From positions 1 through 39,361 of the forward strand of contig JALORE010000034.1 of NCBI GenBank assembly GCA_025459125.1: a stretch of 39,361 nt of DNA. The letters run 5' to 3'. Below, piece by piece: positions 10,663 through 36,664 of the stretch (positions are counted from its first letter, which is position 1; each line of letters starts with the position of its first letter). The DNA comes from Planctomycetota bacterium (GTDB lineage: Bacteria; Planctomycetota; Phycisphaerae; Sedimentisphaerales; Anaerobacaceae). Under the pieces are notes generated by a model that saw nothing but the letters and a program-made list of their open reading frames with translations, did no database searches and was not told the DNA's origin. Made by a program: the position numbers and the translations under genes.

Positions 10663-12468
10663 ATGGGCACGAAGAGGACGTTCATCATCGCGACACTGGT
10701 GCTCGCCGGCACGGCGGGCCTGACTCTGGGGGACGTGGTCACCGGGCTGTTGGGCCATTGGCCTCTGGATGGGGATGCCACAGACCTTTCGGGCAACGGT
10801 CATGAGGGTACCCTGATGGGCGACGCCCACTTCAGCACCGACGGGGTGTTCGCCGGGGCGCTTGCCCTGGATGGCGACGGCGACTTCGTCGAGATGCGCG
10901 GGTACCAGGGCCCCATGAAAAGCCCCTGGACTCTCGCCTGTTGGGTCCAGACCACCGGCGCCGGCGATATGGACATCCTGAGCTGGGGCACCGAGGGCGG
11001 CGGCCTGAAGGTCGAGTTTCGCTTCAACGCCGGCCGGCTGCGCATCGAGCACGGCAACGGCAATATCCGCGGCAACACCGTCATCAACGATGGGGAATGG
11101 CACCATGGTGTAGCCCAACTGCCGGCGGGGGGCGTTATCAAGGATGTCCTCTTCTACCTGGATGGCAAGCCCTTGGCCCTTTTTGCAACGATCGGCAACG
11201 GCAACAACCCCTTCAACACTACGCCGGGGATCGACTTCAACATCGGGCGCAGCGGCCCCCTGTCCGGCCGGTATTTCCAAGGCCAGATCGACGACGTGCG
11301 TGTCTACGACCGGCTCCTGAGCGCGGAGGAGATCGGGCAACTGGTCGTCCGGCCCCAGGCCCATGCGCCCAAGCCGGCCAACGGCGCGGTGGGTGTCGAG
11401 GTGCCGCTGCTGCAATGGACCGCCGGCGACGGCGCGGCGCTCCACACGGTGTACCTGGGAACCAGCCCCGATCTGACGGAGGCCGACCGCGTCGCCGAGC
11501 GCCTGCCGGCGGCAGTCTATTACCATGCGCCCGGCCTGCAGCCGGGAACCACTTACTACTGGCGGGTGGACGAGATCGAAGCCGATTTGGCCACCGTTCA
11601 CACGGGCGCCGTCTGGAGCTTCGTGACGCAGGATATTAAAGCCTACGGCCCAAGTCCCGCGGAGGGCGACAATCGCGTCACGACCGCCCCCGTGCTGACG
11701 TGGCTGCCGGGTCGAGCCGCCCTGGAACACCACGTCTACTTCGGCGCTAGCCGGGAGGCCGTGGCCCAGGGTACCCCCGCTACGGACAAGGGCGTGATCA
11801 AAGAGACGTCCTTCACCCCGGGCGAGCTGCAAAGCGCCACCACCTACTACTGGCGCGTGGATGAAGTGGTCGCCGGCGGCGTGATCCAGATGGGGGCCGT
11901 CTGGAGTTTCACCACGATCCTCGCCATCGACGATTTCGAGAGCTACACCGACGACGAAGGCAACCGCATCTACGAAACCTGGATCGACGGCTGGACCAAC
12001 GGCACCGGCTCGACGGTCGGTTACACGGTGGCTCCCTTCGCCGAACAGAAGACCGTTCACGGTGGCAAACAGGCCCTGCCTCTGGACTACAACAACCTTC
12101 ACGCCCCCTACTACAGCGAAGCCGAGCGTCAGTTCGCCCCCACCCAGGACTGGACAATCAACGGCCTGGATACGTTGGTCGTCTATCTCCGCGGTCGGGC
12201 GACGAACGGACCCGCGCGGGTGTATCTGATCGTAAAGGACACGTCCAACCGCACTGCCACCGTGAGCCACCCCGACTCGGCCGTGGTCACGGTCGGGAAA
12301 TGGGTCGAGTGGCAGATCGCCCTGGGCGATCTGACCGGCGTGAACGCGGCGCGGATCAAGCAGATCGTCCTCGGCATCGGCGATAAAACGGCATCCGCGC
12401 CGGGCGCCGCGGGATTGATTCTTGTGGATGATTTCTACGTCTTTCGGGCCGCCCCCGCCCAGAACTGA
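10663..12468 (+). CDS. Secreted modular protein: LamG - Fn3-like x2 - DDFESY C-module
   Basis: A 601-residue protein with a signal peptide (about residues 1-24). ATG 10663 is chosen because GGAGAA lies 8 bases upstream; the longer reading from 10588 puts non-signal sequence in front. A LamG/concanavalin-like domain spans about 28-225 (LLGHWPLDGDATDLSGN, IDDVRVYDRLLSAEEI). Two Fn3-like modules follow, each with YYWRVDE and VWSF landmarks (WRVDE near 300 and 397). A C-terminal module (about 418-601) starts DDFESYTDDEGNRIYETW, carries a GGKQ..P.DYNN segment and ends with a beta-sandwich-like LTGVNAARIKQIVLGIG. In this gene the C-module is uninterrupted. It probably binds glycans outside the cytoplasm. 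It is the first of three similar genes spaced 81 and 91 bases apart, probably one transcript. Confidence 0.75.
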   Translation: MGTKRTFIIATLVLAGTAGLTLGDVVTGLLGHWPLDGDATDLSGNGHEGTLMGDAHFSTDGVFAGALALDGDGDFVEMRGYQGPMKSPWTLACWVQTTGAGDMDILSWGTEGGGLKVEFRFNAGRLRIEHGNGNIRGNTVINDGEWHHGVAQLPAGGVIKDVLFYLDGKPLALFATIGNGNNPFNTTPGIDFNIGRSGPLSGRYFQGQIDDVRVYDRLLSAEEIGQLVVRPQAHAPKPANGAVGVEVPLLQWTAGDGAALHTVYLGTSPDLTEADRVAERLPAAVYYHAPGLQPGTTYYWRVDEIEADLATVHTGAVWSFVTQDIKAYGPSPAEGDNRVTTAPVLTWLPGRAALEHHVYFGASREAVAQGTPATDKGVIKETSFTPGELQSATTYYWRVDEVVAGGVIQMGAVWSFTTILAIDDFESYTDDEGNRIYETWIDGWTNGTGSTVGYTVAPFAEQKTVHGGKQALPLDYNNLHAPYYSEAERQFAPTQDWTINGLDTLVVYLRGRATNGPARVYLIVKDTSNRTATVSHPDSAVVTVGKWVEWQIALGDLTGVNAARIKQIVLGIGDKTASAPGAAGLILVDDFYVFRAAPAQN

Positions 12469-12549: not shown

Positions 12550-15500
12550 ATGTGTAGGAGAATGGCTTTCATCGTGGCCGTTGTGCTGGTGCTGAGCATG
12601 GCTTTCCCCGCCCCGGCGGGCCAACTGGGGTATTGGGCTTTCGATGACGGCACCGGGACAACCGCCCGGGACAGTTCCGCCAACAAGAACGACGGGCGGC
12701 TGGTGGGCGGGCCCGTCTGGGTGGACGGCAAGTTCGGCAAGGCCCTCCAATTCGATGGCGTGGACGATTTCGTGGAAGTGCCGCACAACGCCAAGCTGAT
12801 CCCCACCACCGGGAAGGCCACGGTGTCCGTGTGGATCAACGCCAAACGCCACACCGGTCCCGGGGGCGGTACATGGCAAGGCATCCTGGCGAAAGGCGGA
12901 GCGCCGCGCCTTTATAACCTGTACACGCACGCCAATCGGGTCCTCCACTTCAGCACCGGAGTGAGCGGCGCGTACGTGGGGAGTCTGAGCACGGGCGAAG
13001 TCCCTCTGAACGAGTGGGTCCATGTCGCGGTCGTCGTCGATGGCCGGCATCTGTACTACCTCAACGGGGAGCCGGCCGGCGTTGCCGGGGAAGGAGCGAC
13101 TGTTCCCTCCGGCGGGACCGCCAACCTGACGATCGGGCTGACCACGAGCGGCGAGGCCAACTACTTCCTGGGCCTGATCGACGAGGCGCGAGTGTACGAC
13201 CTCGCCCTCACCGAGGTTCAGATCAAGGGGCTCACCAACGGCATCGCGCCCACCTGGCCCAAGGCGAGGAATCCCAACCCGGCCAACGGAACCGTCGGGG
13301 TCATGACGCCGTTGTTCCAGTGGGAACCCGGCGACGGCGCCCTGTTCCACGATGTCTACTTCGGCACCACGCCGGAGTTGACCGAGGCGAACCGCGTCGC
13401 CACGCGGCTGCCGATGGCCATGTACTGGCACGTGCCCGGCCTGGAGTCGGGCGTGAAGTACTACTGGCGCGTGGACGAAGTGGCGGCGGACCTGACGGTA
13501 ACTACCGGCGACGTTTGGAGTTTCACCGCAGCGCCGCTCAAGGCTCACACGCCCAGTCCCGCCGATGGGGCTCGGAACGTACCCCTCGATGCCAAGCTTG
13601 CCTGGTCGATAGGAAGCGGCGCGATTTCGCACGACGTGTACTTCGGCACCAGCCGTGACGACGTGGCCGCCGGCACCGGCGGGACGGCCAAGGGCAACCG
13701 GCCCGGCACGACCTTCGATCCCGGCGCGCTGGCCGGAGACACCACGTACTTCTGGCGCATCGACGAGACCCAGGCCGGCGGCAACAAGGTCACAGGTGAC
13801 ATCTGGAGCTTCCGGACACTGCCCAACCTGCCGATTTCCGACCCGAACCTCGTGGGCTGGTGGAAGCTGGACGAGGAGGCCGGAACCTTCGTGCTGGATT
13901 CCTCCGGTTACGCGAACCACGGCACCTTGCGGAGCAGTCCGCAGTGGGTCCCCGGCCATGACGGCGGCGCCCTGCAGTTGGACGGCGTGGATGACTACGC
14001 CGAAATCCCGCACCATGCCACCCTGACCGTGACCACGGAAGTGGCGGTGATGGCCTGGATCAATCCGCGGAGCCTGGTCGCGCAGTATCAGGGCGTTGTC
14101 GCCAAGGGCAATACCATCCGCTCCTACAGTCTGTACCTGCAAAGCAACGGTACGTTCCACTTCAGCACGACGTCGGCCGGCGCTTATGTGGGCTCCTCGA
14201 GCACCGGTACGGTGAAAGCCAACGAGTGGTCACATATCTGTGCCATGGTCGAGGGAGGCTCGCATTACTACTTCATCAACGGCGAGCCCGCCGGCACCGG
14301 TGGCAGCGGCATCAACCTGCCCGGCGCCTCCGACACGTGGACCGTGCGCATCGGCAATACCCAGGAAGGCGGACGTTGCTTCAGCGGAACCATCGACGAT
14401 GCCCGCGTGTACAAGGCCGCCCTGACCCTGGCAGAACTCAAGGAGGCCATGCAGGGCGATCCCTCCCGGGCCCGGGATCCGCAGCCGCCCCACCAGGCGG
14501 TCGTGGACATTGTCCATGCCGAGGCCCTGGGCTGGACGGCCGGCAAGACAGCCGCCAAGCACGATGTCTACTTCGGCGCGGACAAAGCCGCGGTCGAGAC
14601 GGCGGACACGACATCCCCCGTCTACAAGGGCCGGCAGACGGAGACCAGCTTCGCCCTGGCGGGCCTGGTCCAATTTGGCGGCGGCGTCTACTTCTGGCGG
14701 ATCGATGAGGTCGAAGCGGACGGCGTGACCGTCCACAAGGGCGCGGTCTGGACGTTCACCGTTCCCGCCGCTCTGATCGTCGACGACATGGAGAGCTACA
14801 CCGACGACGAAGGCAATCGCATCTATGAAATTTGGACTGACGGCTGGACCAACAAGACCGGCTCGATCGTGGGCAATCTCGTCGCACCCTTCGCGGAACG
14901 CACCATCGTCCATGGCGGCAAGCAGTCGATGCCCATGGACTACAACAACACCAAGACCCCGTTCTACAGCGAAGCCGAGTTGGCGTTCGCGCCGGTGCAG
15001 AACTGGACCAACCACGGCGTCACGGACCTGAGCCTGTGGTTCCGCGGCAACCCTCTGCGTTTCGTGGATAAGGGCGATGGCGCGTTCACGGTCGGCGCTT
15101 CCGGCCACGACATCTGGGACAATGCCGACGACTTCCGCCTGGTCTACAAGCGGCTGGCCGGCAACGGCTCGATCACGGTCAAGGTCGAAAGCCTGGTCAA
15201 TACCAACGCCTGGGCCAAGGCCGGCGTCATGATCCGCGAGAACCTCACGGCCGGTTCGATGATGGCCTACATGATCGTCAGTTGGAGCAGCGGCGTCTCG
15301 TTCGGCTGGCGGCAGGTCGCCGATGGAGCGTGCGGCAGCGCCACGCAGGCGAACGTCGCCGCACCGCAGTGGGTGAAGCTGACCCGCACGGGCAACGCTT
15401 TCACCGCCCAATACTCCGCCGACGGCAAGACCTGGATCGACATCAAGGACGCCGCCGGCAAGGCCGTCTCGACGACGATCCTGATGGGCGCCAACGTCTA

Positions 15501-15879
15501 CATCGGTCTGTGCACGACCAGCCACAACGCGGCCGCCACGACCACCGCCCAGTACAGCGGTGCCGCGACCACGGGCGGTGTCACCGGCGCCTGGCAGGAA
15601 ACCTGGATCGGCGACGATCCGGATCGCGCCAACGGCACGGCCGGTCTGTACGTGGCGGTCGAGGACAGTGCCGGCAAGGTGGCGGTGGCGACTCATCCCG
15701 ATCCGGCGGCCGTGAACGTAACCGCCTGGACCGAGTGGAAGGTCCCACTGAGCAGCCTGACCGGCGTGAACCTGACCCGAATCAAAACGCTGTATGTCGG
15801 CGTGGGCGACCGGAAGAATCCAGTCCCGGACGGCTCGGGCCGCATCTACATCGACGATATCCGGCTGACCAAACCGTGA
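12550..15879 (+). CDS. Secreted modular protein: LamG - Fn3-like x2 - LamG - Fn3-like - split C-module
   Basis: A 1109-residue protein with AGGAGG before ATG 12550 and a signal peptide. Modules in order are LamG (about 27-225), Fn3-like (WRVDE near 306), Fn3-like (WRIDE near 402), second LamG (about 430-630, NLVGWWKLDEEAG to IDDARVYK), third Fn3-like (WRIDE near 717), then the DDMESYTDDEGN C-module. The C-module is split: after LWFRGN (near 835) a 180-residue concanavalin-like domain of DUF1349 type is inserted (GHDIWDNADDF, WAKAGVMIREN, WVKLTRTGN). The C-module then resumes at GTAGLYVAVEDSAGK and ends IYIDDIRLTKP. No anchor or sorting tail is seen. A carbohydrate-binding or adhesion role is inferred from the domains. 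Confidence 0.75.
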   Translation: MCRRMAFIVAVVLVLSMAFPAPAGQLGYWAFDDGTGTTARDSSANKNDGRLVGGPVWVDGKFGKALQFDGVDDFVEVPHNAKLIPTTGKATVSVWINAKRHTGPGGGTWQGILAKGGAPRLYNLYTHANRVLHFSTGVSGAYVGSLSTGEVPLNEWVHVAVVVDGRHLYYLNGEPAGVAGEGATVPSGGTANLTIGLTTSGEANYFLGLIDEARVYDLALTEVQIKGLTNGIAPTWPKARNPNPANGTVGVMTPLFQWEPGDGALFHDVYFGTTPELTEANRVATRLPMAMYWHVPGLESGVKYYWRVDEVAADLTVTTGDVWSFTAAPLKAHTPSPADGARNVPLDAKLAWSIGSGAISHDVYFGTSRDDVAAGTGGTAKGNRPGTTFDPGALAGDTTYFWRIDETQAGGNKVTGDIWSFRTLPNLPISDPNLVGWWKLDEEAGTFVLDSSGYANHGTLRSSPQWVPGHDGGALQLDGVDDYAEIPHHATLTVTTEVAVMAWINPRSLVAQYQGVVAKGNTIRSYSLYLQSNGTFHFSTTSAGAYVGSSSTGTVKANEWSHICAMVEGGSHYYFINGEPAGTGGSGINLPGASDTWTVRIGNTQEGGRCFSGTIDDARVYKAALTLAELKEAMQGDPSRARDPQPPHQAVVDIVHAEALGWTAGKTAAKHDVYFGADKAAVETADTTSPVYKGRQTETSFALAGLVQFGGGVYFWRIDEVEADGVTVHKGAVWTFTVPAALIVDDMESYTDDEGNRIYEIWTDGWTNKTGSIVGNLVAPFAERTIVHGGKQSMPMDYNNTKTPFYSEAELAFAPVQNWTNHGVTDLSLWFRGNPLRFVDKGDGAFTVGASGHDIWDNADDFRLVYKRLAGNGSITVKVESLVNTNAWAKAGVMIRENLTAGSMMAYMIVSWSSGVSFGWRQVADGACGSATQANVAAPQWVKLTRTGNAFTAQYSADGKTWIDIKDAAGKAVSTTILMGANVYIGLCTTSHNAAATTTAQYSGAATTGGVTGAWQETWIGDDPDRANGTAGLYVAVEDSAGKVAVATHPDPAAVNVTAWTEWKVPLSSLTGVNLTRIKTLYVGVGDRKNPVPDGSGRIYIDDIRLTKP

Positions 15880-15970: not shown

Positions 15971-18900
15971 ATGAAATGGTGGAATGGTGTGTTGGTACCG
16001 ATCGTGGTGCTGGCCCTGATGCAGGGCAACGCGGCCTATGGGGCTTTTGATCCGCTCCAGGACCCCGCGTTGATCGGGTGGTGGAAGTGCGATGAGGGCC
16101 AGGGCAACGTCGTTGCCGACGCCTCGGCGGCTCATCACGACGGGACGTTCGTGGATGGCAACCCCGCGTGGGTCCCCGGCGCCGTGGGCAATGCGATCGA
16201 CTTGATCGATCCCACGCTGGTCGAAGTGCCTCCCATGGGACTGACGCTGACGGAGGCCACGATAATCGGCTGGGTCCTGCCCCACGGCCCCCAGGTGCGG
16301 TGGGCCTCCATCATCATGCACCGCGGCCCCGGCCCGGCCCACGGGTTCAACCTGACGGAAACGCGGCAACTGGCCTACCACTGGAATGGCCTGGCCACCA
16401 CGTATAACTTCCGCGGCAATGCGTACTATGTCAACGATGAATGGACGCACTGCGCGTTGACGATCGAGCCCACCAAGGCGACGTTCTACGTCAATGGCGT
16501 GGAGGCCGCCGTCAATGCCATCGCGCACACCGCGGCGACCTGGGACGGTCGGGTGTGGTTCGGCGGCGACCGCACCTACACCGGCACGCGCCACATCAAA
16601 GGCGCCCTGGACGAGATCCTGTTCTTCCGGCGGGCCCTGACGGCGGCGGAGATCAAATCCCTGGTCCCGCCCAAGCTCAAGGCGACCAAGCCCAGCCCGG
16701 CCGACGGCGCCACCAATATCACGATGCCGCTGCTGCAATGGACGGCCGGCGAGATGGCGGTCTTCCACAACGTCTATCTCGGCACGACCCCGCAGTTGAC
16801 GGAAGCCCATCTCGTGGGCAAGAGCCAGCCGTTCGCCATGCTGTACTACCTGCAGGGCTTTGCCCCGGGCACCACCTACTACTGGCGGGTGGATGAGATC
16901 ACCGCGGCCGGCGTCGTCACGACCGGCGATGTCTGGCGCTTCACGACCGCCGCAGTCACGGCCACGCAGCCGGTGCCGCCGGATGGCGCCGCGTATGTCA
17001 CGACCAGCGCGACCCTGTCGTGGACCGCGGGGCAGAACGCCGTGATGCACGATGTCTACGTCGGCGCCAATCGCGCCGACGTCGAGAGCGGCGCGGCCGG
17101 CGCGTTCAAGGGCAAACAGGCCACCACCAGTCTGCAACTGGATGGACTGGCCCGTGGCACGACGTATTACTGGCGGGTGGACGAGGTGGCGGTGAACGGC
17201 AGCAAGGTCGCGGGCCCGGTTTGGAGCTTCACGACGCGACCGGTCATCGCCAAGCCCGATCCGGACTTCGTCGGCTGGTGGAAACTGGAGAATGAAGGCT
17301 CCGGCGCCGCCATCGACTACTCCGGCAACGACCGCGATGGCATCCTGATGGGCGGTCCGCAGTGGGTGGACGGGTACCTGGGCGGCGCCCTCAAGGTCGA
17401 CGGCGTCGATGATTACGTCGAAACCAACTATGCCCAGGATCTGGCGAAGTGGACGGTCTGCACCTGGGTGATGAGCCCGGCGGCACCGGCCGCCACCGCG
17501 GCGACCGGTCCGGTCCATCGCGAGAAGAATTTCCAGATCAACTGGAACCACGGTACCGCCGCGGACCGCGGCGCCGCCGGTCTGCGCGTTGGCGGAACCT
17601 GGTCGTTCGCCAGTTTCGGAACCCTGTCCGCAAACACCTGGTATCACCTGGCCGCGAGCTTCGATGGCACAACGCTCAAGGCGTACACCAACGGGGTGTT
17701 GATCACCACGACGCCGGTGTCGGGCGTACCCGATGCCGAAGTCGGCACGCTGAAGTTCGGACGCCATTCAACCACCGCGACAAATTTCTTCGCCGGCACG
17801 ATCGACGATGTCCGGGTTTACGGGCGGGCCCTGACCGACGAGGAGATCAAGAAGGCGATGCAGGGCGACCCGCTCCTGGCCTCGAATCCGCAACCCGCGC
17901 ACGGCGTCAGCGTCGATATCCAGAACGTGGCCGACCTGGCCTGGACGGCGGGCGAAGGAGCGGCCCAGCACGATGTCTATTTCGGCAAGGACCTGGCGGC
18001 GGTGAAAGCGGCCAGCCCGACTTCGCCCGAATACAAAGGCCGGCAGGCCGGCACGAGTTTCTCCCTGGCCGGACTGGTCGAGATCGGCGGCGGCTCCTAC
18101 TTCTGGCGGATCGATGAAGTTGCGGCCGACGGCACCATCCATAAGGGCAGTGTCTGGACGTTTACGATTCCCGGCTACCTGATCGTGGATGAGTTCGAGA
18201 GCTATACCGATGATGAGGGCAACCGCATCTACGAGACCTGGGAGGACGGCTGGGTCAACGGGACCGGCTCGGTGGTCGGCAACCTCCAGGCCCCCTTTGC
18301 CGAGCGGACGGTCATCCACGGCGGCAAGCAGGCCATGCCCATGGACTACAACAACGCCAAGACGCCCTTCTACAGCGAAGCGTCCCAGACCTTCGCGCCG
18401 GTGCGGAACTGGACCGACTATGGCGTGACCGACCTGAGCCTCTGGTTCCGCGGTAACCCGGTCCGCTTCGTGGACAAGGGCAACGGCGCCTTTACCGTCG
18501 GCGCTTCCGGCCATGACATCTGGGACAACGCCGACGACTTCCGCTTCGTCTGGAAGCGGTTGGCCGGCGATGGCTCGATCGTGGTCAAGGTCGAGAGCAT
18601 CGGGAACACCAACGGCTGGGCCAAGGCCGGCGTGATGATCCGCGAAAACCTGACCGCCGGCTCGACCATGGCGTACATGATCCAGAGCGTCGCCAGCGGC
18701 GTCTCGTTCGGTTGGCGGCAGATCGCCGACGGCACCTGCGGCAGCTCTACCCAGGCAGGCATTATGGCACCGCAGTGGGTGAAGCTGACCCGCAAGGGCA
18801 ATGCCTTCACCGCGCAGTACTCCGCCGACGACAAGACCTGGACCGACGTCAAGGACGCCACCAGCGGCCAACCCGTCTCCACCACGATCCTGATGGGAGC

Positions 18901-19285
18901 CAGTATCTACATCGGTCTGTGCACGACCAGCCACAACGCGACCGCCACGACGACGGCACAATACTCCGGTGCCGCGACCACCGGCGGTGTCACCGGCGCC
19001 TGGCAGGAGACCTGGATCGGCGATGATCGGGACCTCACCAATGGAGCCGCCAGCCTGTACCTGGTCGTCGAGGACAGCGCCGGCGAGAGCGTCGTGGTGA
19101 CTCATCCCGATCCGGCGGCGGTGAACGTGGCCGCCTGGACCGAGTGGAAGGTCCCGCTGAGCAGCCTGACCGGGGTGAACCTCGCCCGGGTCAAGATGCT
19201 GTACCTCGGCGTGGGCGACCGGAAGAACCCCGTCCCGGACGGCACCGGCCGCATATACATCGACGACATCCGCGTCGGCAAGTAA
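15971..19285 (+). CDS. Secreted modular protein, paralogue of the 12550 gene
   Basis: A 1104-residue protein with AGGAGG before ATG 15971 and a signal peptide ending near AAYGA. The module order equals that of the preceding gene: LamG (about 30-230), two Fn3-like modules (WRVDE near 304 and 401), LamG (about 428-630), Fn3-like (WRIDE near 712), and a C-module from DEFESYTDDEGN near 740 split by the DUF1349-like domain (about 836-1012). The C-terminal third is closely similar to 14790-15879 at DNA level, with many third-position changes. The first LamG domains are much less alike. This suggests an old tandem duplication with conserved C-termini and divergent binding heads. A strong terminator follows. 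Confidence 0.75.
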   Translation: MKWWNGVLVPIVVLALMQGNAAYGAFDPLQDPALIGWWKCDEGQGNVVADASAAHHDGTFVDGNPAWVPGAVGNAIDLIDPTLVEVPPMGLTLTEATIIGWVLPHGPQVRWASIIMHRGPGPAHGFNLTETRQLAYHWNGLATTYNFRGNAYYVNDEWTHCALTIEPTKATFYVNGVEAAVNAIAHTAATWDGRVWFGGDRTYTGTRHIKGALDEILFFRRALTAAEIKSLVPPKLKATKPSPADGATNITMPLLQWTAGEMAVFHNVYLGTTPQLTEAHLVGKSQPFAMLYYLQGFAPGTTYYWRVDEITAAGVVTTGDVWRFTTAAVTATQPVPPDGAAYVTTSATLSWTAGQNAVMHDVYVGANRADVESGAAGAFKGKQATTSLQLDGLARGTTYYWRVDEVAVNGSKVAGPVWSFTTRPVIAKPDPDFVGWWKLENEGSGAAIDYSGNDRDGILMGGPQWVDGYLGGALKVDGVDDYVETNYAQDLAKWTVCTWVMSPAAPAATAATGPVHREKNFQINWNHGTAADRGAAGLRVGGTWSFASFGTLSANTWYHLAASFDGTTLKAYTNGVLITTTPVSGVPDAEVGTLKFGRHSTTATNFFAGTIDDVRVYGRALTDEEIKKAMQGDPLLASNPQPAHGVSVDIQNVADLAWTAGEGAAQHDVYFGKDLAAVKAASPTSPEYKGRQAGTSFSLAGLVEIGGGSYFWRIDEVAADGTIHKGSVWTFTIPGYLIVDEFESYTDDEGNRIYETWEDGWVNGTGSVVGNLQAPFAERTVIHGGKQAMPMDYNNAKTPFYSEASQTFAPVRNWTDYGVTDLSLWFRGNPVRFVDKGNGAFTVGASGHDIWDNADDFRFVWKRLAGDGSIVVKVESIGNTNGWAKAGVMIRENLTAGSTMAYMIQSVASGVSFGWRQIADGTCGSSTQAGIMAPQWVKLTRKGNAFTAQYSADDKTWTDVKDATSGQPVSTTILMGASIYIGLCTTSHNATATTTAQYSGAATTGGVTGAWQETWIGDDRDLTNGAASLYLVVEDSAGESVVVTHPDPAAVNVAAWTEWKVPLSSLTGVNLARVKMLYLGVGDRKNPVPDGTGRIYIDDIRVGK

Positions 19286-19658: not shown

Positions 19659-19747
19659 GGAATCCGGCTCAGGTGCGCGAGGAACTCAGTCGTAATCGGT
19701 ATCAGGCCAGAGCGAGGGCCAGGCGTCGGTGAGCACCCACCGTAGAC

Positions 19748-19776
19748 TTGAAGCGCCGCCGATTCTCTGGCAGAAT
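19748..19776 (+). promoter_or_regulatory. Possible promoter for the sigma factor gene
   Basis: TTGAAG (19748-19753), 17 bases, then CAGAAT (19771-19776), 36 bases before ATG 19813. Confidence 0.4.
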
Positions 19777-19812
19777 GGTCCCAGCGACGGAACACAACGC
19801 CGGGGAGTCGGC

Positions 19813-20442
19813 ATGAGTGATGTCACGCGCATCTTGAATGCGATGGAACAGGGGAATGCGAGGGTCACGGACGAGCTCTTGCCCTTGGTCTACGAAGAGC
19901 TGCGTGTTCTCGCCGCCCAGAAACTCTCGCACGAGCCTCCCGGGCAGACACTCCAGGCAACGGCCCTCGTGCATGAAGCCTATTTGCGCTTGGTGGGTTC
20001 GCAAGACCGGAGCTGGAAGAGCCGGGCCTACTTCTTCGGGGCGGCCGCCGAGGCCATGCGGCGAATTCTGGTGGAGCATGCCCGGCGCAAGCAGCGGCCG
20101 AAGCATGGGCGGGATTTCCAGAGAGTGGAGCTCAACGACGAGCACCTGTTGGTTGAGATGCCCTGCTCAAATGGCATGATGAAGCGGGCGACTTCCTGGA
20201 GACCCCGGCTCTGGGTCCAAGCCTGGCCGGTGAGGCTCCTGCCGTGGCCGAAGTTCCCGGCGCCATCATCGGGCGGTACAAGCTCCTGGAGAAGATCGGC
20301 GAAGGCGGCATGGCGGTGGTCTATATGGCTGAGCAGGAGCAGCCCATCCGCCGCAAGGTGGCTCTCAAGATCATCAAATTGGGTATGGACACCCGCCAGG
20401 TCATCGCCCGTTTCGAAGCCGAGCGTCAGGCTTTGGCCCTGA
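19813..20442 (+). CDS. Truncated ECF-type RNA polymerase sigma factor (region 2 only), likely broken
   Basis: From ATG 19813 the first ~118 residues match the planctomycete ECF-like sigma family (TIGR02999 type): [82 protein letters not shown]. This is sigma region 2. The expected region 4 (about 60 residues with a helix-turn-helix) is absent. After EMPC (codon at 20164) the frame runs through the kinase gene out of phase as Arg/Trp/Ser-rich nonsense to a stop at 20442. The change occurs where kinase-like sequence begins in another frame, so a deletion has joined the two genes. Without region 4 it is unlikely to recognise -35 elements. Normally this sigma is co-transcribed with the kinase that follows. 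Confidence 0.75.
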
Positions 20443-23400
20443 TGGATCACCCCAGTATCGCCAAGGTTCTCGATGCCGGAGCCACCGAGACGGGAAGACC
20501 TTACTTCGTCATGGAACTGGTCCAGGGGATCTCCATCACCGAGTACTGCGAGAAGAATAGCCTGAGCACCAAGGACCGATTGACGCTGTTTCTCCAGGTC
20601 TGCCATGCCGTGCAGCACGCGCACCAGAAGGGCATCATCCACCGGGATCTCAAGCCCTCCAATGTCATGGTTACGCACCACGATGGCAAGCCTGTGCCCA
20701 AGGTCATCGACTTCGGCATCGCCAAGGCGACCAACCAGAAGCTGACGGAAAAGACGCTCTTTACCCGCTATGCCCACCTGATCGGCACTCCCGCCTACAT
20801 GAGTCCGGAGCAGGCGGAATTGAGCGATCTGGACATCGACACCCGCTCGGATATCTACTCGTTGGGCGTTTTGCTCTATGAACTGCTGACCGGGACCACG
20901 CCCTTCAGTGAAGAAGAACTGCGCCAAGCCGGTTACCTCGAGATGCAGCGGGTGATCCGGGAACAAGAGCCGGTGAAGCCCTCCACCCGGATCAAGACCG
21001 CTCTTCGTGGGGCGAGCGTCCCCGCTCGCCCAAAGACGTTGTGCGGGGACGCACGACCTACGAAGACGTTCACGGGCGGGACGCCCGTGCTCCGGGAGGT
21101 CCGGGGCGATCTGGACTGGATTGTGATGAAGTCCCTGGAGAAAGATCGTGTCCGGCGGTACGAGACGGCCAGCAGTCTGGCCGAAGACATCCGCCGGCAT
21201 CTGGAACATGAGCCGGTCCTGGCCCGGGGCCCCGGCGCCGCGTACCGCCTGCATAAGTTCCTCCGCCGCCACCGGGTCCAAACCCTCATCGGGCTGACGG
21301 CGGCCATCCTGATGGCCATTGCCGCCGTTGTCCTTCTCCAATGGAGCCGGGACCGCCAGCGGCTGGCCGAGGCGGCAGGCATCCAGCATCAGGTCCAAGC
21401 CTTGCAGGACAGGGAAATCCTGTCCCAAGCCCGTAAACAGTATGCCCAAGGGCAGCGTGAAACCGCCCTCAAGACCATCCAACGCATCTTCGCCAGCCCG
21501 CACGCGGGAGGCGAAGCGCGGTTCCTCGGCGCCGGCATCCTCGCCGAGGACGGCCGAGCCAAGGAGGCGATGGCCCTGCTGGATGAACTGGTGGGTGAAC
21601 GCGCGGAGATCGCCGGAGCGGCCCATGCGCTACTGGCCCGCGTCCTCTGGGAGAGTCAATCGGCGAAGGGCGAGAAGTCGCAAGAGATCGAGGAACACCG
21701 TCGCCAAGCCGAGGCCCTGCTGCCGGAGACCGCGGAGGCCTATTTCCTGCGGGCCATGACCGCCGTGACCATCAAAGAGCAGCTTGCCTTTCTCGACCAG
21801 GCCCTGCAACTGGCTTCTCGTGATCCCGACCCGTTGAACCCGATCAACTATGAATCCCACCGGCTGCGGGCGTTCCTCTATTACGCGTCGCGGAAATACG
21901 AGAGGGCCGAGCGTGACGCGTTTGCCATGACCATTCTGCGGCCGCGCGACCCACTGGGGTACTCCCTGCGGGCACTGGCTCTGCGCGAATCAGGCCAGTA
22001 CCAAGAGGCGATAGCGGCGTATGACGGCGCACTGACACTGGTACAGAAGGACGACCCGCAGTATTTCGACCTGACTGCCCAGCGTGTGGAGACCCTGCTA
22101 CGGATGGGGAGCCATCGACCGGCCCTCGCGGCCGCGCAGGAGGCGCTGCGGTTCTGGCCCGATCGCCCGATCTTTGAGTATGACCTTTTCGCGGCCCACA
22201 CCGCCCTCGGTGACTACGAGGCGGCCGCGGCCCTCTTTGCGCGGATCACCAGTCCCGGCCCGGAAGCGCGGCGCCCCTTCGAGAACTGGTGCGCGAAGTA
22301 CATCTTCGACAGCCTCCAGGCGGGGCGCCCCTGGCATCCGGCGGACCGCACGCCCGGGGGCGCGGCCTTCCTGCCGCTGGTGGAGGCCGAGGAAACCTAC
22401 CAGCATCTGGCGGCCAAGGCCAAGCGCGTGATCGCCGATGGCTTTGCGGCGCGCTGGTCGGCGGATGGGAAGAAGTTGGCTCTTAGCATGGGATTCCCGG
22501 GCAACAACGGCGTGGCGGTGTACGATCCTGCCACGGGCGAGACGGAGTTGCTCCTGGTCCCCGGCAGGGCTCCAGCCTGGTCACCCGATGGGCGGTATAT
22601 CGCCTTTGGCCGCGACTGCCAGGCCCTGCGGGTCCCGGAATTCGCCACCGCCGAGCGCCAGTCGAAGCCGCGTCCGCAGGTGGAGGAAGAGGTCTGGGTC
22701 ATGAAGGCGGATGGGACCGGGCCCCGCCGTCTGGCGCGGGGCGGCTCGCCCTCCTGGAGCCAGGATTCCCAGGGCGTCTACTATCACTCCCGTGGGGACA
22801 ATGCCCTCTATTCGATCGCCGTCGAAGGCCCGGACGCCACTGGCAAACGAATCATGGCGTGCTCCAATCCCTGGCCCTCGGTGTCGCCGGACGGCCAACG
22901 GGTGGCCTATCTGGAGACCGGTCTGCTCAAGGTGCAGGACTTGGCTTCTGGGACGCTCGTGGCCCAGTGGCCGGCACCGCCCGGCACCTGGGGCGGGGCG
23001 GCCTGGTCGCCTGCCGGTCGTGAACTGTGTATGGGGGCCAATGCCGGCGCCGAGAACCGGATGGGGCTGTGGGTCTACCGCCTCGGCGCCAGCGAACCGC
23101 TTAAGATCCTGGACAGTCACATCGCGGCCGCTGCCTGGGCCCCGGACGGGACAAAGCTTGTCTTTCATTTGGAGGCGCCGTACTTCGAGATCTGGACCGC
23201 CGACTTGGACCCGAAAGTCTCGACCATTGAGACCCTGGGTCCCGCACAGACGATCAACGAACACTTCCGCGACATGGTGACCCTGTACACCCGGCGGATC
23301 AAAGCTGATCCGCTGGATGCCTCCGCTTACGCCAAGCGCGCCGGGTACTACGATGCCTTGCACAACCGAGCAGAAGTCAACGCCGACATGCGGCGCTGGT

Positions 23401-25430
23401 CCGCCCTAGCCAACCACGGCATATCGGTGGGTTGGAGGTTCGGCCGGGCAAGGACCCTCATGCGCAGCATCGCCGGCCCATTGGGTTATCAACTCGTGGT
23501 CTTCCTGGAAAGACAGGAAGACGGGATGGAACAACTACGTATTGCCTGCGGGCAGAAGGGAAGGTGTGAGATGAGAGTGTTTGAAATTCCGATGTTGGCC
23601 ATATCCCTGTTAGGGCTGAGTCTGCTTTCAGGCCTGGACACGCCGGTCGCACACGCCGATTTCGCCTTCGGGGAACTGGTGGAGGTTCATACGGCCTTGC
23701 CGTTCCTCACCGGGGAAACCTTTGTGAGCTGCTTCTCCTCGGACGACCGGGAGATGTTCCTCATGTCGGACCGCGGCGGGGGACAGGGCGGCTTCGATCT
23801 CTGGGTGTCCAAACGGGCTTCAGCCGATGCCGACTGGGGCCCGCCCGCGAATCTCGGACCTGTCGTCAACAGTGCGAAGGGGGACTACATCCCATCGCTC
23901 TCCGCCGACGGTCTTGAGCTGTATTTCGCCTCCGACCGGTCCGGCAACAATGATATCTATTTGGCCAGACGTGCGACCCCAACCAGCCCGTGGGGTCCAC
24001 CGACCAGTCTCGGCCCCAACGTGAACAGCACGGCGCTCGAGTATGCTCCTTCGGTGTCGTCGGATGGCTTGGAGCTCTACTTCCAGTCGGGACGCCCCGG
24101 TGGATATGGCCGCTGGGATTTGTACGTCAGCAAGCGTGCGACCCGGAACGATCCCTGGGGCAATCCGGTCAATCTCGGCGCCGCGGTGAATAGTCCGGCC
24201 GATGAGGCGGGTACCTGGTTCTCGCCGGACGGGCTGGTCCTCATCTTCCAGGACGGCGCTACTCCTCGGCCCGGCGGCTATGGCAGCGGGGACCTGTGGA
24301 TGACGAGGCGGGCCAGCCGCTCGGCTCCCTGGGAGCCGGCGGTGAATCTGGGACCCGTTGTCAACGGACCGACCAGGGATTGCCTGGCTTGCTTCGCTGC
24401 CGATGGCTCCGCCCTGTACTTCGTGAACGACATCGGCTACTGGAAGGCCCCGATCCTCCCCATCCTGGACTTCAATAGCGACGGCAAGGTCGATGCGAAA
24501 GACCTTCTGTTGATGACACAACACTGGGGCGAGAACGATCCCCGCTATGATGTCGGCCCCTTTGCCTGGGGCGACGGCATCGTGGACGCGCAGGACTGGG
24601 TGGTCCTCGTAGAGGCCATCGGGGGATCCGGCTTCGGTCTCGATCCCAAACCGTATGCGGCAGAGGTCCCGCGCGACGTGGTCCTGACCTGGACGCCGGT
24701 TCCGTTTTCCCCAAGCTATGACGTCTACTTCGGGACCTCCCAGGCGGCGGTCAACAGCGCCAACCGAGCCAATCCCCAAGGAGTCCTGGTCAGCCAAGGA
24801 CAGACTGCGCCTCTGTACCAGCCCACCGGGTCTCTGGAATACAACGGAGTCTATTACTGGCGTATCGATTTCGTGACGTCCGGTCCGACTCCCACCATCT
24901 ACCAGGGACCGGTCCTGCGCTTCACGACCGAAGCATTTGCCTATCCGATCCAGAATGTCACCGCCAAGGCCTCGAGCGTGCAAGGCACCATGGGGCCGGA
25001 CAAGACGGTCGACGGCTCCGGACTCGACCAGAACGACGGCCACTGTGCGGAAGGGAAGGATATGTGGCTCAGCACAGGAGTGTCGCCCCACTGGATTCAG
25101 TACCAGTTCGACAAGGTCTATGCCTTGCACGAATTGTGGGTGTGGAACTCGAACTCAGCGGTCGAGCCTTTTATCGGCTTTGGGGCCAAGACCGTCAAGA
25201 TCGAATACTCCCTTGATGGCACGACGTGGACCGCGCTGGCCAATGTGCCGGAGTTTGCCCGGGCACCCGGTAAGTCCGGCTATGTCCACAACACCACCGT
25301 CAGCTTCGGTGGAATCTCAGCCAGGTACGTCAAGCTGACCATCGAGAGAGGCTGGGGCACCACACCCTCCGTCGGCTTGAGCGAGGTGCGATTCTTCTAC
25401 ATCCCGACCGCTTCAGCGCCCAAGCCGTGA
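20244..25430 (+). CDS. Transmembrane Ser/Thr protein kinase with TPR and WD40/TolB-like sensor, read through into a secreted protein
   Basis: An open frame of 1728 codons from GTG 20244. The kinase domain (about 9-330) has the glycine loop [10 protein letters not shown] (18-27), Lys42 in VALK, catalytic H133-R-D-L-K, D156-F-G and [12 protein letters not shown], so it should be active. A membrane helix is near 347-367, then TPR-like helices (about 390-690) and beta-propeller repeats ([30 protein letters not shown]; about 730-990). Three oddities: there is no ribosome site or normal N-terminus (kinase-like sequence extends upstream to 20160 without a start); residues about 255-285 are encoded by palindromic repeat DNA; and near codon 1110 the frame enters a new signal peptide. 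The natural kinase product probably ends near 23570 but lacks a stop. Family relatives phosphorylate unknown targets. Confidence 0.8.
21010..21089. repeat. Palindromic repeat DNA inside the kinase coding sequence
   Basis: GGGCGAGCG (21010-21018) pairs with CGCTCGCCC (21023-21031), and CACGGGCG (21071-21078) with CGCCCGTG (21082-21089). A GTGCG/CGCAC stem lies between, with two AAGACGTT copies. This looks like intergenic REP-like sequence, yet it is translated in frame as [20 protein letters not shown]-type residues between VKPSTR and [11 protein letters not shown]. Confidence 0.7.
23571..25430 (+). CDS. Secreted PD40/dockerin-like/F5/8C protein, in frame with and downstream of the kinase
   Basis: ATG 23571 is preceded by AAGGGAAGGTGTGAG, a plausible ribosome site, and opens a clear signal peptide ([20 protein letters not shown], cleavage near AHA). 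It therefore probably makes a separate 619-residue exported protein. Four PD40/WD40-like repeats (NLGPVVNS..., [13 protein letters not shown] type) span about 44-286. A dockerin-like pair follows near 300-345 ([24 protein letters not shown]). One YYWRID Fn3-like module (about 360-455) links it to the neighbouring secreted proteins. The C-terminus is an F5/8C (discoidin-like) domain (about 457-617, [17 protein letters not shown] to [11 protein letters not shown]). It is probably a glycan-binding exported protein. A hairpin terminator follows. Confidence 0.7.
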
Positions 25431-28452: not shown

Positions 28453-31400
28453 ATGTGTAGAAGACTCGTTTTGTGGTGTTGCCTCGCGGCGACGCTGGGC
28501 TTCGTCGGCTCCCAGGCGTTCGGTGCGACGCTCGACCTGCGGATTACCAACGGTGCGAACGATGCCGAGGAACATCTGGCCGACGGCAGTATGGACGTCA
28601 CCAGCACCGACCTGGAGTTCCCCTACGAGGATAATGGGAACCCCTCCGCGACCGATCTGCAGTTGAATGTCCTGCGGTTCAATGTCGCGCTGCCCAAGGG
28701 CGCGGTGGTCACCAAGGCGTACCTGGAACTCGAGCAGGACGAGACCAAGGGCAACGACAAGCCGGTTAACGTCATCATCGACGGCCAGCTCACGCTCAAC
28801 GCACCGGCGATCACCAGCGCAGCCCGGAACCTTTCGAGCCGGACTCCCTGGACGGCGGCAAATGTGAAGTGGACCGTTCCCACGGGCATGAAGAATGACC
28901 AGAAGTTCCAGAGCCCTGACATTACGGCCATCCTCACGGAGATCATCAACCAGGACGGCTGGGTAAGCGGTAACGCCCTGCTCTTAGCCATCCGGGACGA
29001 CCCCGAGAACCCATCGAAGGGTCTGCGCTGCGTGGAGTCGGTCGAAGGCGAAGCCACCGCCGCCCCGCTGCTGCACATCGAAGCGGTCGTGGCCAAAGCC
29101 ACGAACCCGGACCCGAAGAATGGTGCGACCGAAGTGACCTCGCCGCTGTTCCAGTGGACGGCCGGCGACACCGCCGTCACGCACAAGATCTACATGGGCA
29201 CCAGCCCGACGATCACCGAAGCGGATCTGGTTTCCCCCGGCATGCCGGCGCCGATGTATTTCCACGTCGCGGGCCTGACGCCGGGCGCGACCTACTATTG
29301 GCGCGTCGATGAAGTCGCCCTCGATGGCACCGTCACGGTGGGCGATGTCTGGAGCTTCAGCGTGATGCCCCTGACCGCCCACTTCCCGACCCCGGCCGAT
29401 GGGGCCACCAATATCGCGACCGCGGGCCAGTTGAAGTGGTCCGCCGGGCAGGACGCGATCGCGCACATGGTCTACCTGAGCAGCGATAAGGCCGCTGTCA
29501 CCTCCGGCGCCGTCAGCGTTCAAGTGGCCGCGGGCACCGATCTGACCTACAACTTCACCGGCCTGCAGCCGTTCACCACCTATTACTGGCGCGTGGACGA
29601 GGTCACCAGCATGGGCCAGACCGTGGCCGGCCCGGTTTGGAGCTTCAGCACCGTCAGCTACCTGTCCCTGGCAGACGCCGCGGTCACGCTGAACTACAAC
29701 AACAGCGCTGCGCCGTTCTTCACGGAGACGGTGCTGACGGGCGCCACGGACTGGACCGCGTACGGGCTCTCGGATCTGATCGTGCAGTTCACGGGTCGCG
29801 CCGGCCCCTCCGGCGGCCTGACCTATGACGCGTCGAATCAGACCTACACCCTGACCGGCTCCGGCACGGATATCTGGAACAACAGCGATCAATTCCACTA
29901 TGCGTATAAGACCCTCAGCGGCGACGGCACGATGGTCGCCCGGGTCACCACCATCGGAGCCGGCGCCAACACGTGGGCCAAGGGCGGTGTCATGATCCGC
30001 CAGAGCCTCGCGGCCGGCTCGACCCATGCCTACATGCCTCTCACCGCCAACAGCGATGGGACGGCCGGCAACGGCGCCAGCTTCCAGCGGCGGCTCGCGG
30101 CCGACGGAGCCTCGTCGAACAGCGATTCCGGCGTGAAGATCGTGCCCCCGTACTGGGTGAAGATCGAGCGCAAGGGCGCGGACTTCTCCGGCTTCGTTTC
30201 CCCGGACGGCCAGACGTGGACCCAGATCGGCACGGCACAGACGATTGCCATGGCGGACCCGGTCCTGATCGGCCTGGCGGTGACCTCGCATGATGCGGCC
30301 ACGCAGCGGACCTTCACGTTCGACGGCGTCGCCACCACGGGCAACGTCGCGCCGGACGGCCCCTTCTCGGCCTGGGACGACATCGGCCTGGCCAGCAACG
30401 ATCCGCAGCCGATCTTTGCGGCGGTGGAGGATGCGGCGGGCAAACAGGCCGTCGTCGCCTTCGGCGATCCGGCCGCCACGCAGATTGCCCAACCCTGGAC
30501 CTGGAAGATCCCGCTCAGCGCCTTCGCCGGCGTGGACCTCAAGACCGTCGCCAAGCTGCATCTCGGCGTGGGTGATCTCCTGAACCCGGTCGCGGGCGGC
30601 AGCGGCGTCGTGACGTTCAACAGCGTCCGCGTGGTCCGGCCGGTCGTTCTGGCCAAAGGCGCCGATGTGACTGCTCCGGACGACAACGTCCTGGGTGTTC
30701 CCAACAACAAGAACTGGCCGGCGGCGGAGCCCCCCTGGCTGGCGATCGACGACAAGACCGGCACCAAGTTCCTGCACTTCAACGGCAAGACGGAGCCCGT
30801 CGGGTTCCAGGTGCAGGTCCTGGCCGGGCCGACCATCGTCACCGGGCTGAGCCTTACGACCGCCAACGACGCGGTCGAGCGCGACCCGGTTGCCTTCGAG
30901 CTGTCCGGCTCGAACGACGGCTTTGCGGGCCCCTGGACGCTGATCGCCAAGGGCGACATCGCGGACTTCGCCGGCGCGACGGCCTGGGAGCGCTTCACGA
31001 AGAATACGACGCCGATCACGTTCCCGAACAAGGTTGCGTACAAGTTCTACCAGGTGCTGTTCACCGCGGTCCGCGACCCGGCGGCGGCCAACAGCATGCA
31101 GATCGGCGAAGTCGAGCTGCTCAACGGCGGCCCGAACGTCATCTGGGTGTCCGATGCCTATGACGACAAGAAAGACGGCGTCCGCGATGACGAGGCCTGG
31201 GTGGGCTTCCTGGCCTCTCAGGGCTTCAATGTCGACTACCGGATGGGCGCGGCGCTCGGCAACGGGTACTGGCGCGTGCTGGACCAGGCCAAGATCGACG
31301 CGTTGAATGCCGCCGACCTGATCATCTTCAGCCGCAACCTCAACAGCGGCGACTACAACAACAGCAATGAGCGGAATCAGTGGAACGGCATCAAGGCCCC

Positions 31401-32280: not shown

Positions 32281-34020
32281 ATGGGTAAGAAGCTCGTTTC
32301 TCTGTTGTGTGTGGGACTGGGGCTGGTCGTGCTGACCGCACCGACGGCACAGTGTATGAACGTCGACGTCCGCATCGCCAGCGGCAATGACGATGCCGAA
32401 GAACACTTGGCCGCCGGCGACATGGATATCGGCAGCACGGACCTGGAGTTGCCCTATGAGGACGACGGCACTCCCAGTGCCACAGATGATCAACTGACGG
32501 GCCTGCGCTTCACGGTGCCGGTACCCAAGGGCGCCCAGATCCTCAAGGCGTACCTGGAATTCGAGATGGATGAGACCAAGGGCAACACCAAGCCTGTGAA
32601 CTTGGTCATTGAGGGACAGCTAACCGCAAACGCACGGGCGATCACCGCCGCCACCGGCGACCTCACCGGTCGGACCCCGTGGACTGATGCGCAGGTGAAG
32701 TGGACCGTCCCAACCGGGTTAGCGGTGGATGCGAAGTTCCGCAGCCCGGACATCTCCGCCATCATCAAAGAGATCATCAGCCAGAACGGCTGGGTCGCCG
32801 GCAATGCCCTTATGATTGCCGTCCGCGACGACAAGAGCGCTCCGTCCACGGGCCTGCGGTGCGTGGAAGCCTACGACGGTGAGCCGACGGCGGCGCCGTT
32901 GCTGCATCTCGAGGTCTTCAATCCCACGGCGCACACGCCGAACCCAGCCGATGGCACCCTGGGCGTCTTCATGCCCCTGTTCACGTGGATGGCCGGGGAC
33001 GGCGCGATGTTCCACAGCGTCTATCTGGGCAAGACGCCGGAGTTGACGGAGGCCGACTGCGTTGCGAAGAACCAGTATCCGACCATGTACTATCACGTGC
33101 TCGGTCTGGAACCCGGCGTCCAGTACTATTGGCGCGTGGATGAGACCGATGTCACCGGGAAGATCACGACCGGCCCCGTCTGGACCTTCGTCGCGCAGGC
33201 CGACACGGCTTACTATCCGACGCCCGCCAACGGCTCGACGGATGTCTCGCCGAGCGCGGCGCTGACCTGGCAGCCCGGCTTGGGCGTCATCAAGCATCAC
33301 GTGTACTTCGGGAACAGCCTTGACGCCGTCACACAGGGCGCCGCGGGCACCGACAAAGGCGAAACCCCGGATCCGACCTTCAAGCCGACGGCTCTCGAGC
33401 CGGTTACGACCTACTACTGGCGGGTGGACGAGATCGGGCTGGGCGGCGCCGTCAAGACCGGTCCCGTCTGGAGCTTCACCACCTACCTGCCGGTGGACGA
33501 CTTCGAAAGCTACACGGACAATGAAGGCGGCCGCATCTACGAGACGTGGATCGACGGCTGGACCAACAACACCGGCTCGACGGTAGGAAATACGACAGCC
33601 CCCTTCGCCGAGCAGACGATCGTCCGCAGCGGCAAGCAGTCCATGCCCATGGACTACAACAACGCGCGGACGCCCTTCTACAGCGAGGCCGAGCGAGAGT
33701 TCGCCGCCACGCAGAACTGGACGGTCGGGGGATTGGCCGACCTGAAGCTGGATTTCCGTGGCAGTTCCCGCAATGGCGCCGGGGCCTTGTACGTTGTCGT
33801 CGCGGACAGCAGCGGCAAGAGCGTCGTCGTTACTCACGCGGATACCGCCGCCGTCACCGCTCCCGTTTGGACCCCGTGGAAGATCCCGCTCAGCAGCCTT
33901 ACCGGCGTGAATCTGAGCCGGGTCAAGAAGATCTCCATCGGGGTGGGCAACCGGCAGAACCCCGCCGCGGGGGGAACCGGACGAATCTACATCGATGAGA
34001 TTCGGGTAACAAAGCCCTGA
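32281..34020 (+). CDS. Secreted modular protein: DDAEEHL - Fn3-like x2 - intact C-module
   Basis: A 579-residue protein with AGGAGG before ATG 32281 and a signal peptide (about 1-25). The DDAEEHL domain spans about 26-208 (GNDDAEEHLAAGDMDIGSTDLE, IISQNGWVAGNALMIAVRDD). Two Fn3-like modules have WRVDE near 284 and 380, the same spacing as in the 25809 and 28453 genes. The C-module (about 403-579) starts VDDFESYTDNEGGRIYETW, has GGLADLKLDFRG joined directly to SSRNGAGALYVVVADSSGK with no nested domain, and ends IYIDEIRVTKP. It combines the N-terminal type of its upstream neighbours with the C-terminal type of the 10663 gene, which suggests module recombination. Probably exported; ligand unknown. 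Confidence 0.75.
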   Translation: MGKKLVSLLCVGLGLVVLTAPTAQCMNVDVRIASGNDDAEEHLAAGDMDIGSTDLELPYEDDGTPSATDDQLTGLRFTVPVPKGAQILKAYLEFEMDETKGNTKPVNLVIEGQLTANARAITAATGDLTGRTPWTDAQVKWTVPTGLAVDAKFRSPDISAIIKEIISQNGWVAGNALMIAVRDDKSAPSTGLRCVEAYDGEPTAAPLLHLEVFNPTAHTPNPADGTLGVFMPLFTWMAGDGAMFHSVYLGKTPELTEADCVAKNQYPTMYYHVLGLEPGVQYYWRVDETDVTGKITTGPVWTFVAQADTAYYPTPANGSTDVSPSAALTWQPGLGVIKHHVYFGNSLDAVTQGAAGTDKGETPDPTFKPTALEPVTTYYWRVDEIGLGGAVKTGPVWSFTTYLPVDDFESYTDNEGGRIYETWIDGWTNNTGSTVGNTTAPFAEQTIVRSGKQSMPMDYNNARTPFYSEAEREFAATQNWTVGGLADLKLDFRGSSRNGAGALYVVVADSSGKSVVVTHADTAAVTAPVWTPWKIPLSSLTGVNLSRVKKISIGVGNRQNPAAGGTGRIYIDEIRVTKP

Positions 34021-36440: not shown

Positions 36441-36566
36441 GGCAGTTTCTCCTTCCCCTGACGCCAAGACGATACCGTGCCGCATCGGTCAAGACAAGAG
36501 AGAGACCGGCTCATCCGGCTCTTGCGGGTCTGACCTGCGGCACTTGGTGCAGGGCGGGTTTTATGG

Positions 36567-36595
36567 TTGACGATCCCCCGATCGGGCCGTTTAAT
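36567..36595 (+). promoter_or_regulatory. Sigma70-type promoter for rhaB
   Basis: TTGACG (36567-36572), 17 bases, then TTTAAT (36590-36595). The leader to ATG 36665 would be about 60 bases. A CCCGATCGGG palindrome lies in the spacer and could be an operator. Confidence 0.55.
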
Positions 36596-36664
36596 CTCTT
36601 TCGCGCGTGCCATCTGTGCACACCTGAGGGCACAGGAGACCTGATTGTGACAAAGGAGCAGGCG

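What the first reader, a model, noticed from the sequence alone, without database searches (positions are those of the whole stretch)
15050..15620. A whole concanavalin-like domain nested inside the conserved C-module
In the 10663 and 32281 genes the C-module reads straight through (LDFRG then SSRNGAGALYVVV). In the 12550 and 15971 genes the same point (LWFRGN) is interrupted by ~180 residues with DUF1349-like features (GHDIWDNADDF, WAKAGVMIREN), after which the C-module resumes (GTAGLYVAVEDSAGK). Paralogues with and without the nested domain in one locus let the insertion point be read directly.
Basis: seen in the sequence. Interest (0 to 1): 0.62.

Follow-up and report, generated by a model that had tools for sequence, protein, structure and literature searches.

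The report
Lectin domain nested inside another lectin
In this planctomycete bacterium, a roughly 190-residue lectin-like domain sits inside one loop of another sugar-binding-type domain; about half of some 100 related proteins in the genome carry it, a few carry an unrelated carbohydrate-binding domain in the same loop, and some relatives look as if they lost it and kept scars.

Summary
The C-module of the 12550 and 15971 products is a CBM11-like jelly roll. The loop between its strands 85-91 and 101-107 is interrupted by a 191-192-residue DUF1349/Ree1/CBM66-like sandwich (15058-15630; 18464-19039). AlphaFold models show one continuous host sandwich with and without the guest. The window's genome holds 54 uninterrupted and 43 guest-bearing C-modules; wider sampling gives 175 uninterrupted, 133 guest-bearing and 3 others, always at the same loop. 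The others carry a complete, unrelated CBM9_1 domain there (found in four species in all). Tandem C-modules in another species keep linker scars that fit guest loss. The guest is under purifying selection and co-diverges with its host; 65 sampled guests form one clade apart from 31 free relatives. Domain insertion is common, and CBMs inside enzymes are known. What is unusual is a lectin-type sandwich inside a lectin-type sandwich at one re-used socket, with natural with/without/other-guest/scar series. Sugar binding is inferred, not shown.

The parts
14773..15057 (+). Host jelly roll of the 12550 product, first part (N-half and entry linker NPL)
   Evidence: Alignment with uninterrupted paralogues; AF2 strands 2-91
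15058..15630 (+). Guest: 191-residue DUF1349/Ree1/CBM66-like beta-sandwich nested in the 12550 host
   Evidence: Pfam DUF1349 E 2.6e-5, below gathering; fold match 3mep Z 19.7, 2.1 A over 160; borders from conserved N96/N287
15631..15876 (+). Host jelly roll of the 12550 product, second part
18179..18463 (+). Host jelly roll of the 15971 product, first part
18464..19039 (+). Guest domain nested in the 15971 host (85% identical to the 12550 guest; dN/dS 0.22)
19040..19282 (+). Host jelly roll of the 15971 product, second part
29662..29817 (+). Truncated host first part in the 28453 gene (first ~45 residues of the module absent)
29818..30396 (+).
   Evidence: Pfam DUF1349 E 6.7e-7; own-genome search; outside the main nested clade in the guest tree
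30397..30642 (+). Host second part in the 28453 gene
   Evidence: C-half profile E 5e-21
11920..12465 (+). Uninterrupted C-module of the 10663 product; loop RATNGPAR at 12196-12219 is the empty socket
33487..34017 (+). Uninterrupted C-module of the 32281 product; loop SSRNGAGA at 33763-33786 is the empty socket

Best explanation
The C-module is a CBM11-like jelly-roll domain of secreted, multi-lectin surface or extracellular proteins. One loop of it (between strands 85-91 and 101-107) is a socket. In an ancestor of this planctomycete family a free DUF1349-type concanavalin-like sandwich was inserted in frame into this loop, between positions 95 and 96. Host and guest each keep their own fold, joined by two linkers, so that the guest projects from one loop of the host. 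The nested unit was then multiplied by gene duplication and inherited as a unit. In some lineages the guest was deleted again, leaving linker scars, and in another paralogue lineage the same socket received an unrelated CBM9_1 domain. Most likely function (inferred): a two-tethered, orientation-fixed pair of sugar-binding sandwiches at the tip of an array of LamG, fn3 and F5/8-type domains, for adhesion to or capture of polysaccharides. SHOWN: nesting, site, folds by model, spread, co-divergence, purifying selection, second guest. INFERRED: single origin of the main guest, loss by deletion, ligand binding, orientation effect.
For: Nesting in frame at one loop: 54 plain, 43 guest-bearing and 1 CBM9 copy with full N-half in the own genome; 175/133/3 over all loci. 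Folds: (CBM11 6r31 Z 15.8, 2.1 A over 140, 18% identity). The guest exists free in many Planctomycetota (matches in 32 of 294 genomes; none of the 29 loci fetched from other genomes has a C-module) and four times in the own genome. The plain host also occurs in other families of the order, where only plain copies were seen, so plain is likely ancestral. 65 nested guests from three genera form one branch (SH-aLRT 88) apart from 31 free ones. Guest and host distances correlate about as well as the host halves do with each other: r 0.42 and 0.54 against 0.46. dN/dS is 0.22 guest, 0.14 N-half, 0.24 C-half. Of 22 columns conserved in free guests, 21 have the same commonest residue in nested ones. 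Host polar and aromatic residues are equally conserved with and without guest. CBM9_1 at the same loop: E 2.9e-43, 1.2e-41, 1.5e-38, and a fourth species by sequence. Scars: loop YTGTGSWQAAAAGMTMPNAPAS scores 17.4 bits against the guest exit profile, more than any other plain loop or any of 1000 shuffles (max 11.2), and the nearest listed relatives of these hosts outside their own group of six are nested. Domain company is LamG, F5/8, CBM4_9 and fn3, with no catalytic domain found in those scanned.
Against: No binding data and no coordinates of a cleft were available. The own-genome host tree does not show nested hosts as one clade (5 changes; AU p 0.04 for one clade), so losses, recombination between paralogues or more than one gain are needed. 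The guest clade rests on SH-aLRT 88 in a quick tree. The D-type guest falls outside it and may be a separate gain. The relative orientation of host and guest in the model was not assessed (no PAE returned).
Confidence: 0.78

Rival explanations
1. The guest is structural only: a spacer or stabilising knob without ligand, tolerated because the loop points away from the host core.
For: The loop tolerates 6-22 residues, ~190-209 residues with the DUF1349-like guest or ~210 with CBM9, so it is permissive; about half of the paralogues do without a guest.
Against: 21 of 22 columns conserved in free guests keep the same commonest residue in nested guests, and dN/dS is 0.22; the fold neighbours include CBM66 and lectins; the second guest is a named carbohydrate-binding family.
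Confidence: 0.25
2. The nested form is ancestral and the uninterrupted C-modules are all products of guest loss.
For: Some uninterrupted copies sit within nested groups in the host tree and some carry linker scars.
Against: Outside the family (f4, f7 of the same order) only uninterrupted C-modules were seen; the deepest branches of the midpoint-rooted tree are uninterrupted; most plain loops have 6-9 residues without scar.
Confidence: 0.1
3. N-half, insert and C-half are three independent tandem domains, and the uninterrupted paralogues are a fusion of the outer two.
For: None found.
Against: The uninterrupted form is one 177-residue jelly roll at pLDDT 97.8. The nested model has the same strands and aligns to single jelly-roll domains across the insert.
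Confidence: 0.02
4. The insert is a mobile element of its own (intein-like, or a domain cassette that still moves between hosts).
For: Two different guests occupy one site, and nested hosts are scattered in the host tree.
Against: Guest and host co-diverge about as much as the host halves do; the guest matches a lectin-type fold and no intein or mobile-element family.
Confidence: 0.03

Closest known systems
GH10 xylanases with CBM4 (or CBM22, unclassified) inserted in the beta3/alpha3 loop (Xyn10C, Pm25; PMC7848910)
   Same: Carbohydrate-binding domains inserted in one permissive loop of a host, with different guests at the same loop in different proteins
   Different: The host there is a catalytic TIM barrel; here the host is itself a carbohydrate-binding-type jelly roll, and with/without/other-guest versions coexist as paralogues in one genome
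SusG alpha-amylase with CBM58 inserted in domain B (cited in PMC7848910)
   Same: A nested CBM thought to act independently of its host
   Different: Enzyme host, single protein, no paralogue series known to me
CBM11 of Clostridium thermocellum Lic26A-Cel5E (6r31, 1v0a)
   Same: Fold of the host module: Z 15.8, 2.1 A over 140 residues
   Different: 18% identity; the Pfam CBM_11 model does not recognise the family (1 of 45 members, E 0.048)
DUF1349 / Ree1-type proteins (3mep ECA2234, 3o12 yeast protein) and CBM66
   Same: Fold of the guest: Z 19.7, 18.7 and 14.4
   Different: Those are not nested in a jelly roll, as far as I know

Membership tests
Discontinuous domain insertion (A1-B-A2) | The host exists uninterrupted elsewhere and the two halves form one fold | tested here: met
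   175 uninterrupted copies; models and alignments across the insert
Discontinuous domain insertion (A1-B-A2) | The guest exists as an independent domain elsewhere | tested here: met
   Matches in 32 of 294 genomes (own included); none of the 29 fetched loci of other genomes has a C-module; four free copies in the own genome
DUF1349 (PF07081) for the guest | Sequence match at or above the Pfam gathering score of 32.4 bits | tested here: inconclusive
   Window copies score 20.3-29.6 bits; 41 of 45 nested modules match at E up to 0.1, best 5.8e-9; paralogue L089 reaches 34.3
DUF1349 (PF07081) for the guest | Ree1/ECA2234-type fold | tested here: met
   3mep Z 19.7, 3o12 Z 18.7
CBM11 for the host | Sequence recognised as CBM_11 | tested here: not met
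   1 of 45 members, E 0.048; hence not filed as CBM11
CBM11 for the host | Jelly-roll fold of the CBM11/CBM30/CBM22 kind | tested here: met
   6r31 Z 15.8; CBM30 and CBM22 lower
CBM11 for the host | Binding of beta-1,3-1,4-glucan in the cleft | not testable with these tools
   Needs protein
CBM9 (PF06452) for the second guest | Full-length match above the gathering score of 23.4 bits | tested here: met
   148.4 bits, positions 1-183 of 185; two further species

The most novel reading that the evidence does not exclude
The C-module is a natural plug-in chassis: one loop of a CBM11-like jelly roll acts as a socket that has gained at least two unrelated carbohydrate-binding-type domains (DUF1349-like, CBM9, perhaps a second DUF1349 event) and lost them again with scars, within one family of planctomycetes that keeps dozens of with, without and other-guest paralogues per genome as a diversifying glycan-binding repertoire.
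Probability: 0.45. Interest if true: 0.65.

Novelty: new variant of a known kind. Interest (0 to 1): 0.5.

Why it matters
Domain insertions are common (about 20% of multidomain proteins, PMC13114784, abstract), but the event itself is rarely visible. Here one genome holds ~100 paralogues with the socket empty or filled with one of two unrelated guests, and relatives hold loops with apparent deletion scars. That makes gain, spread and loss of a nested domain readable at residue level, and gives ready matched pairs to test what two-point tethering does for glycan binding. The socket is also a naturally tried insertion site for protein engineering. The host module, present in about 100 copies per genome, has no Pfam model.

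Tried and rejected
Three tandem domains: rejected by the models. Mobile or intein-like element: no family match, and co-divergence with the host. Further guest types: none seen beyond the DUF1349-like and CBM9 domains in the loci classified; N-half and C-half hit positions of three more genomes were only looked over by eye, so rarer guests are not excluded. One host clade for all nested copies: weakly rejected (AU p 0.04). Sequence relatives with a solved structure for the guest: none significant; for the host only BDI_3064 (E 1.2e-4). Rfam: nothing in the window. Literature searches found no paper on DUF1349 nesting or on a CBM inside a CBM; the library holds open-access papers only. Alignment A1 included a wrongly framed row and was not used.

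Full report
OBSERVATION. The 10663 and 32281 products carry an uninterrupted module of ~177 residues. The 12550 and 15971 products carry the same module split after LWFRGNP and resumed at N-G-x-A-x-LYV. The Asn before GAGALYV (plain residue 96) is nearly invariant in both forms, which fixes the insert of 12550 at 191 codons, nt 15058-15630, and that of 15971 at 18464-19039. A third nested copy (28453 gene, guest 29818-30396) was missed; its host lacks the first ~45 residues.

FOLD. An AF2 model of the uninterrupted module (32281; 45 aligned relatives) has pLDDT 97.8 and pTM 0.92. Its best solved neighbours are CBM11 (Z 15.8, 2.1 A, 140 residues, 18% identity), the N-terminal domain of an exo-beta-agarase, and, lower, CBM30 and CBM22. 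The nested 12550 module has pLDDT 94.1 and pTM 0.81, and its host strands are the same ones, shifted by 191 after the insert: E292-298, E303-307, E320-325, E337-345 and E355-366, against E101-107, E112-116, E129-134, E146-154 and E164-175 in the plain form. Single jelly-roll domains align across the insert with as many residues as in the plain model (8qpg_TA 140 residues in both; 4xup_B 145). The insert (94-269) matches 3mep Z 19.7, 3o12 Z 18.7, GH43 C-terminal domains Z ~15-16 and CBM66 Z 14.4.

HOW COMMON. In the own genome (7.6 Mb, 527 contigs) the guest occurs 50 times and the C-module about 100 times. Of 98 full-length N-halves, 54 are plain, 43 nested and 1 has another insert. Genomes of the same genus hold 33-98 N-half matches each and one of another genus (G015) 95; in a sample of 392 genomes of the phylum only five besides the own, all of the same order, have a match. 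Nested copies also occur in G015 and G017, other genera of the family, at the same loop, with gaps of 191-208 residues; the fetched copies from other families of the order are plain. Over all loci collected up to there are 175 plain, 133 nested and 3 others.

SECOND GUEST. The 'others' hold a complete CBM9_1 domain (PF06452, E 2.9e-43, 1-183 of 185) between the same two halves of the C-module, in L042, L128 and L167, plus L318 from a fourth genome. Positions suggest one more in G002 (C164). CBM9 also occurs un-nested in these genomes. So the socket has taken two unrelated domains.

HISTORY. In a guest tree, 65 nested guests from three genera form one branch (SH-aLRT 88) and 31 free domains lie outside it; the D-type guest of the 28453 gene and L074 also lie outside. 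This fits one gain for the main guest and leaves open a second gain for the D-type. Guest and host distances correlate (r 0.42 with the N-half, 0.54 with the C-half, against 0.46 between the halves), so the nested unit is inherited together. The host tree needs five changes for the nested label, and one nested clade is weakly rejected (AU p 0.04). Losses can explain this: one plain copy (L047) lies inside a well supported nested group, and tandem C-modules in G008 have long loops. One of these, YTGTGSWQAAAAGMTMPNAPAS, resembles the guest's exit segment (17.4 bits against at most 11.2 for 1000 shuffles), and another, YPAPTSAGAQSTSPRYNVPAR, resembles the entry NPAPTS and exit NSPAYN of the nested relative L264. 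The nearest listed hosts outside their own group are nested. Loss by in-frame deletion is therefore inferred, not proven.

FUNCTION. The genes encode a signal-peptide-like N-terminus (read from sequence) followed by LamG, fn3-like, F5/8, CBM4_9 and similar sandwiches; no catalytic domain was found in those scanned. The C-module lies within 25 residues of the stop in 99 of 123 nested and 113 of 175 plain copies (contig ends included). The guest is under purifying selection (dN/dS 0.22), and 21 of the 22 columns conserved in free relatives keep their commonest residue; host polar and aromatic residues are equally conserved in both forms. The most likely reading is a secreted or surface glycan-binding protein whose terminal module displays two sugar-binding sandwiches held by two linkers. 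Ligands are unknown.

KNOWN OR NEW. Insertions occur in about 20% of multidomain proteins (PMC13114784). GH10 xylanases accept CBM4, CBM22 or other CBMs in one loop, and SusG has CBM58 in domain B (PMC7848910). The present case differs in that the host is itself a carbohydrate-binding-type jelly roll without a Pfam model and that empty, filled, differently filled and scarred sockets exist among close relatives. I rate it as a new variant of a known kind.

Noticed in passing
28453-31833 (+), guest 29818-30396: Third nested copy in the window: host lacks its first ~45 residues, guest is of a divergent type shared with L074 and lies outside the main nested clade.
   Followed up: partly
L248, L249, L250 (genome G008): Single proteins with two tandem C-modules whose loops are 14-22 residues long and look like scars of guest deletion.
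   Followed up: partly
20244-25430 (+): One reading frame joins a Ser/Thr kinase (Pkinase E 2e-45), TPRs, PD40 propeller repeats and an F5/8 type C domain; a fusion of signalling and lectin parts, or two genes run together by an error.
   Followed up: no
19729-20442 (+): ECF sigma factor (PF07638, E 2e-36) directly upstream of and overlapping the kinase frame.
   Followed up: no
25761, 28453 and 32281 genes, N-terminal ~200 residues: A shared domain (..DDAEEHL...DLEFPYEDNGTPSATD..) without a Pfam match at E 0.01, apparently twice in the 25761 product.
   Followed up: no
L239 (genome G015, contig C278): Open frame of 4962 residues that contains an uninterrupted C-module.
   Followed up: no
1181-3232 and 36413-38140 (+): GH127 beta-L-arabinofuranosidase and a FGGY sugar kinase lie on either side of the lectin gene array, a carbohydrate-use setting.
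   Followed up: no
host module model of 33487-34017: The turret protein of Haloferax tailed virus 1 (8qpg_TA) is among the closest solved folds to the C-module (Z 14.8).
   Followed up: no
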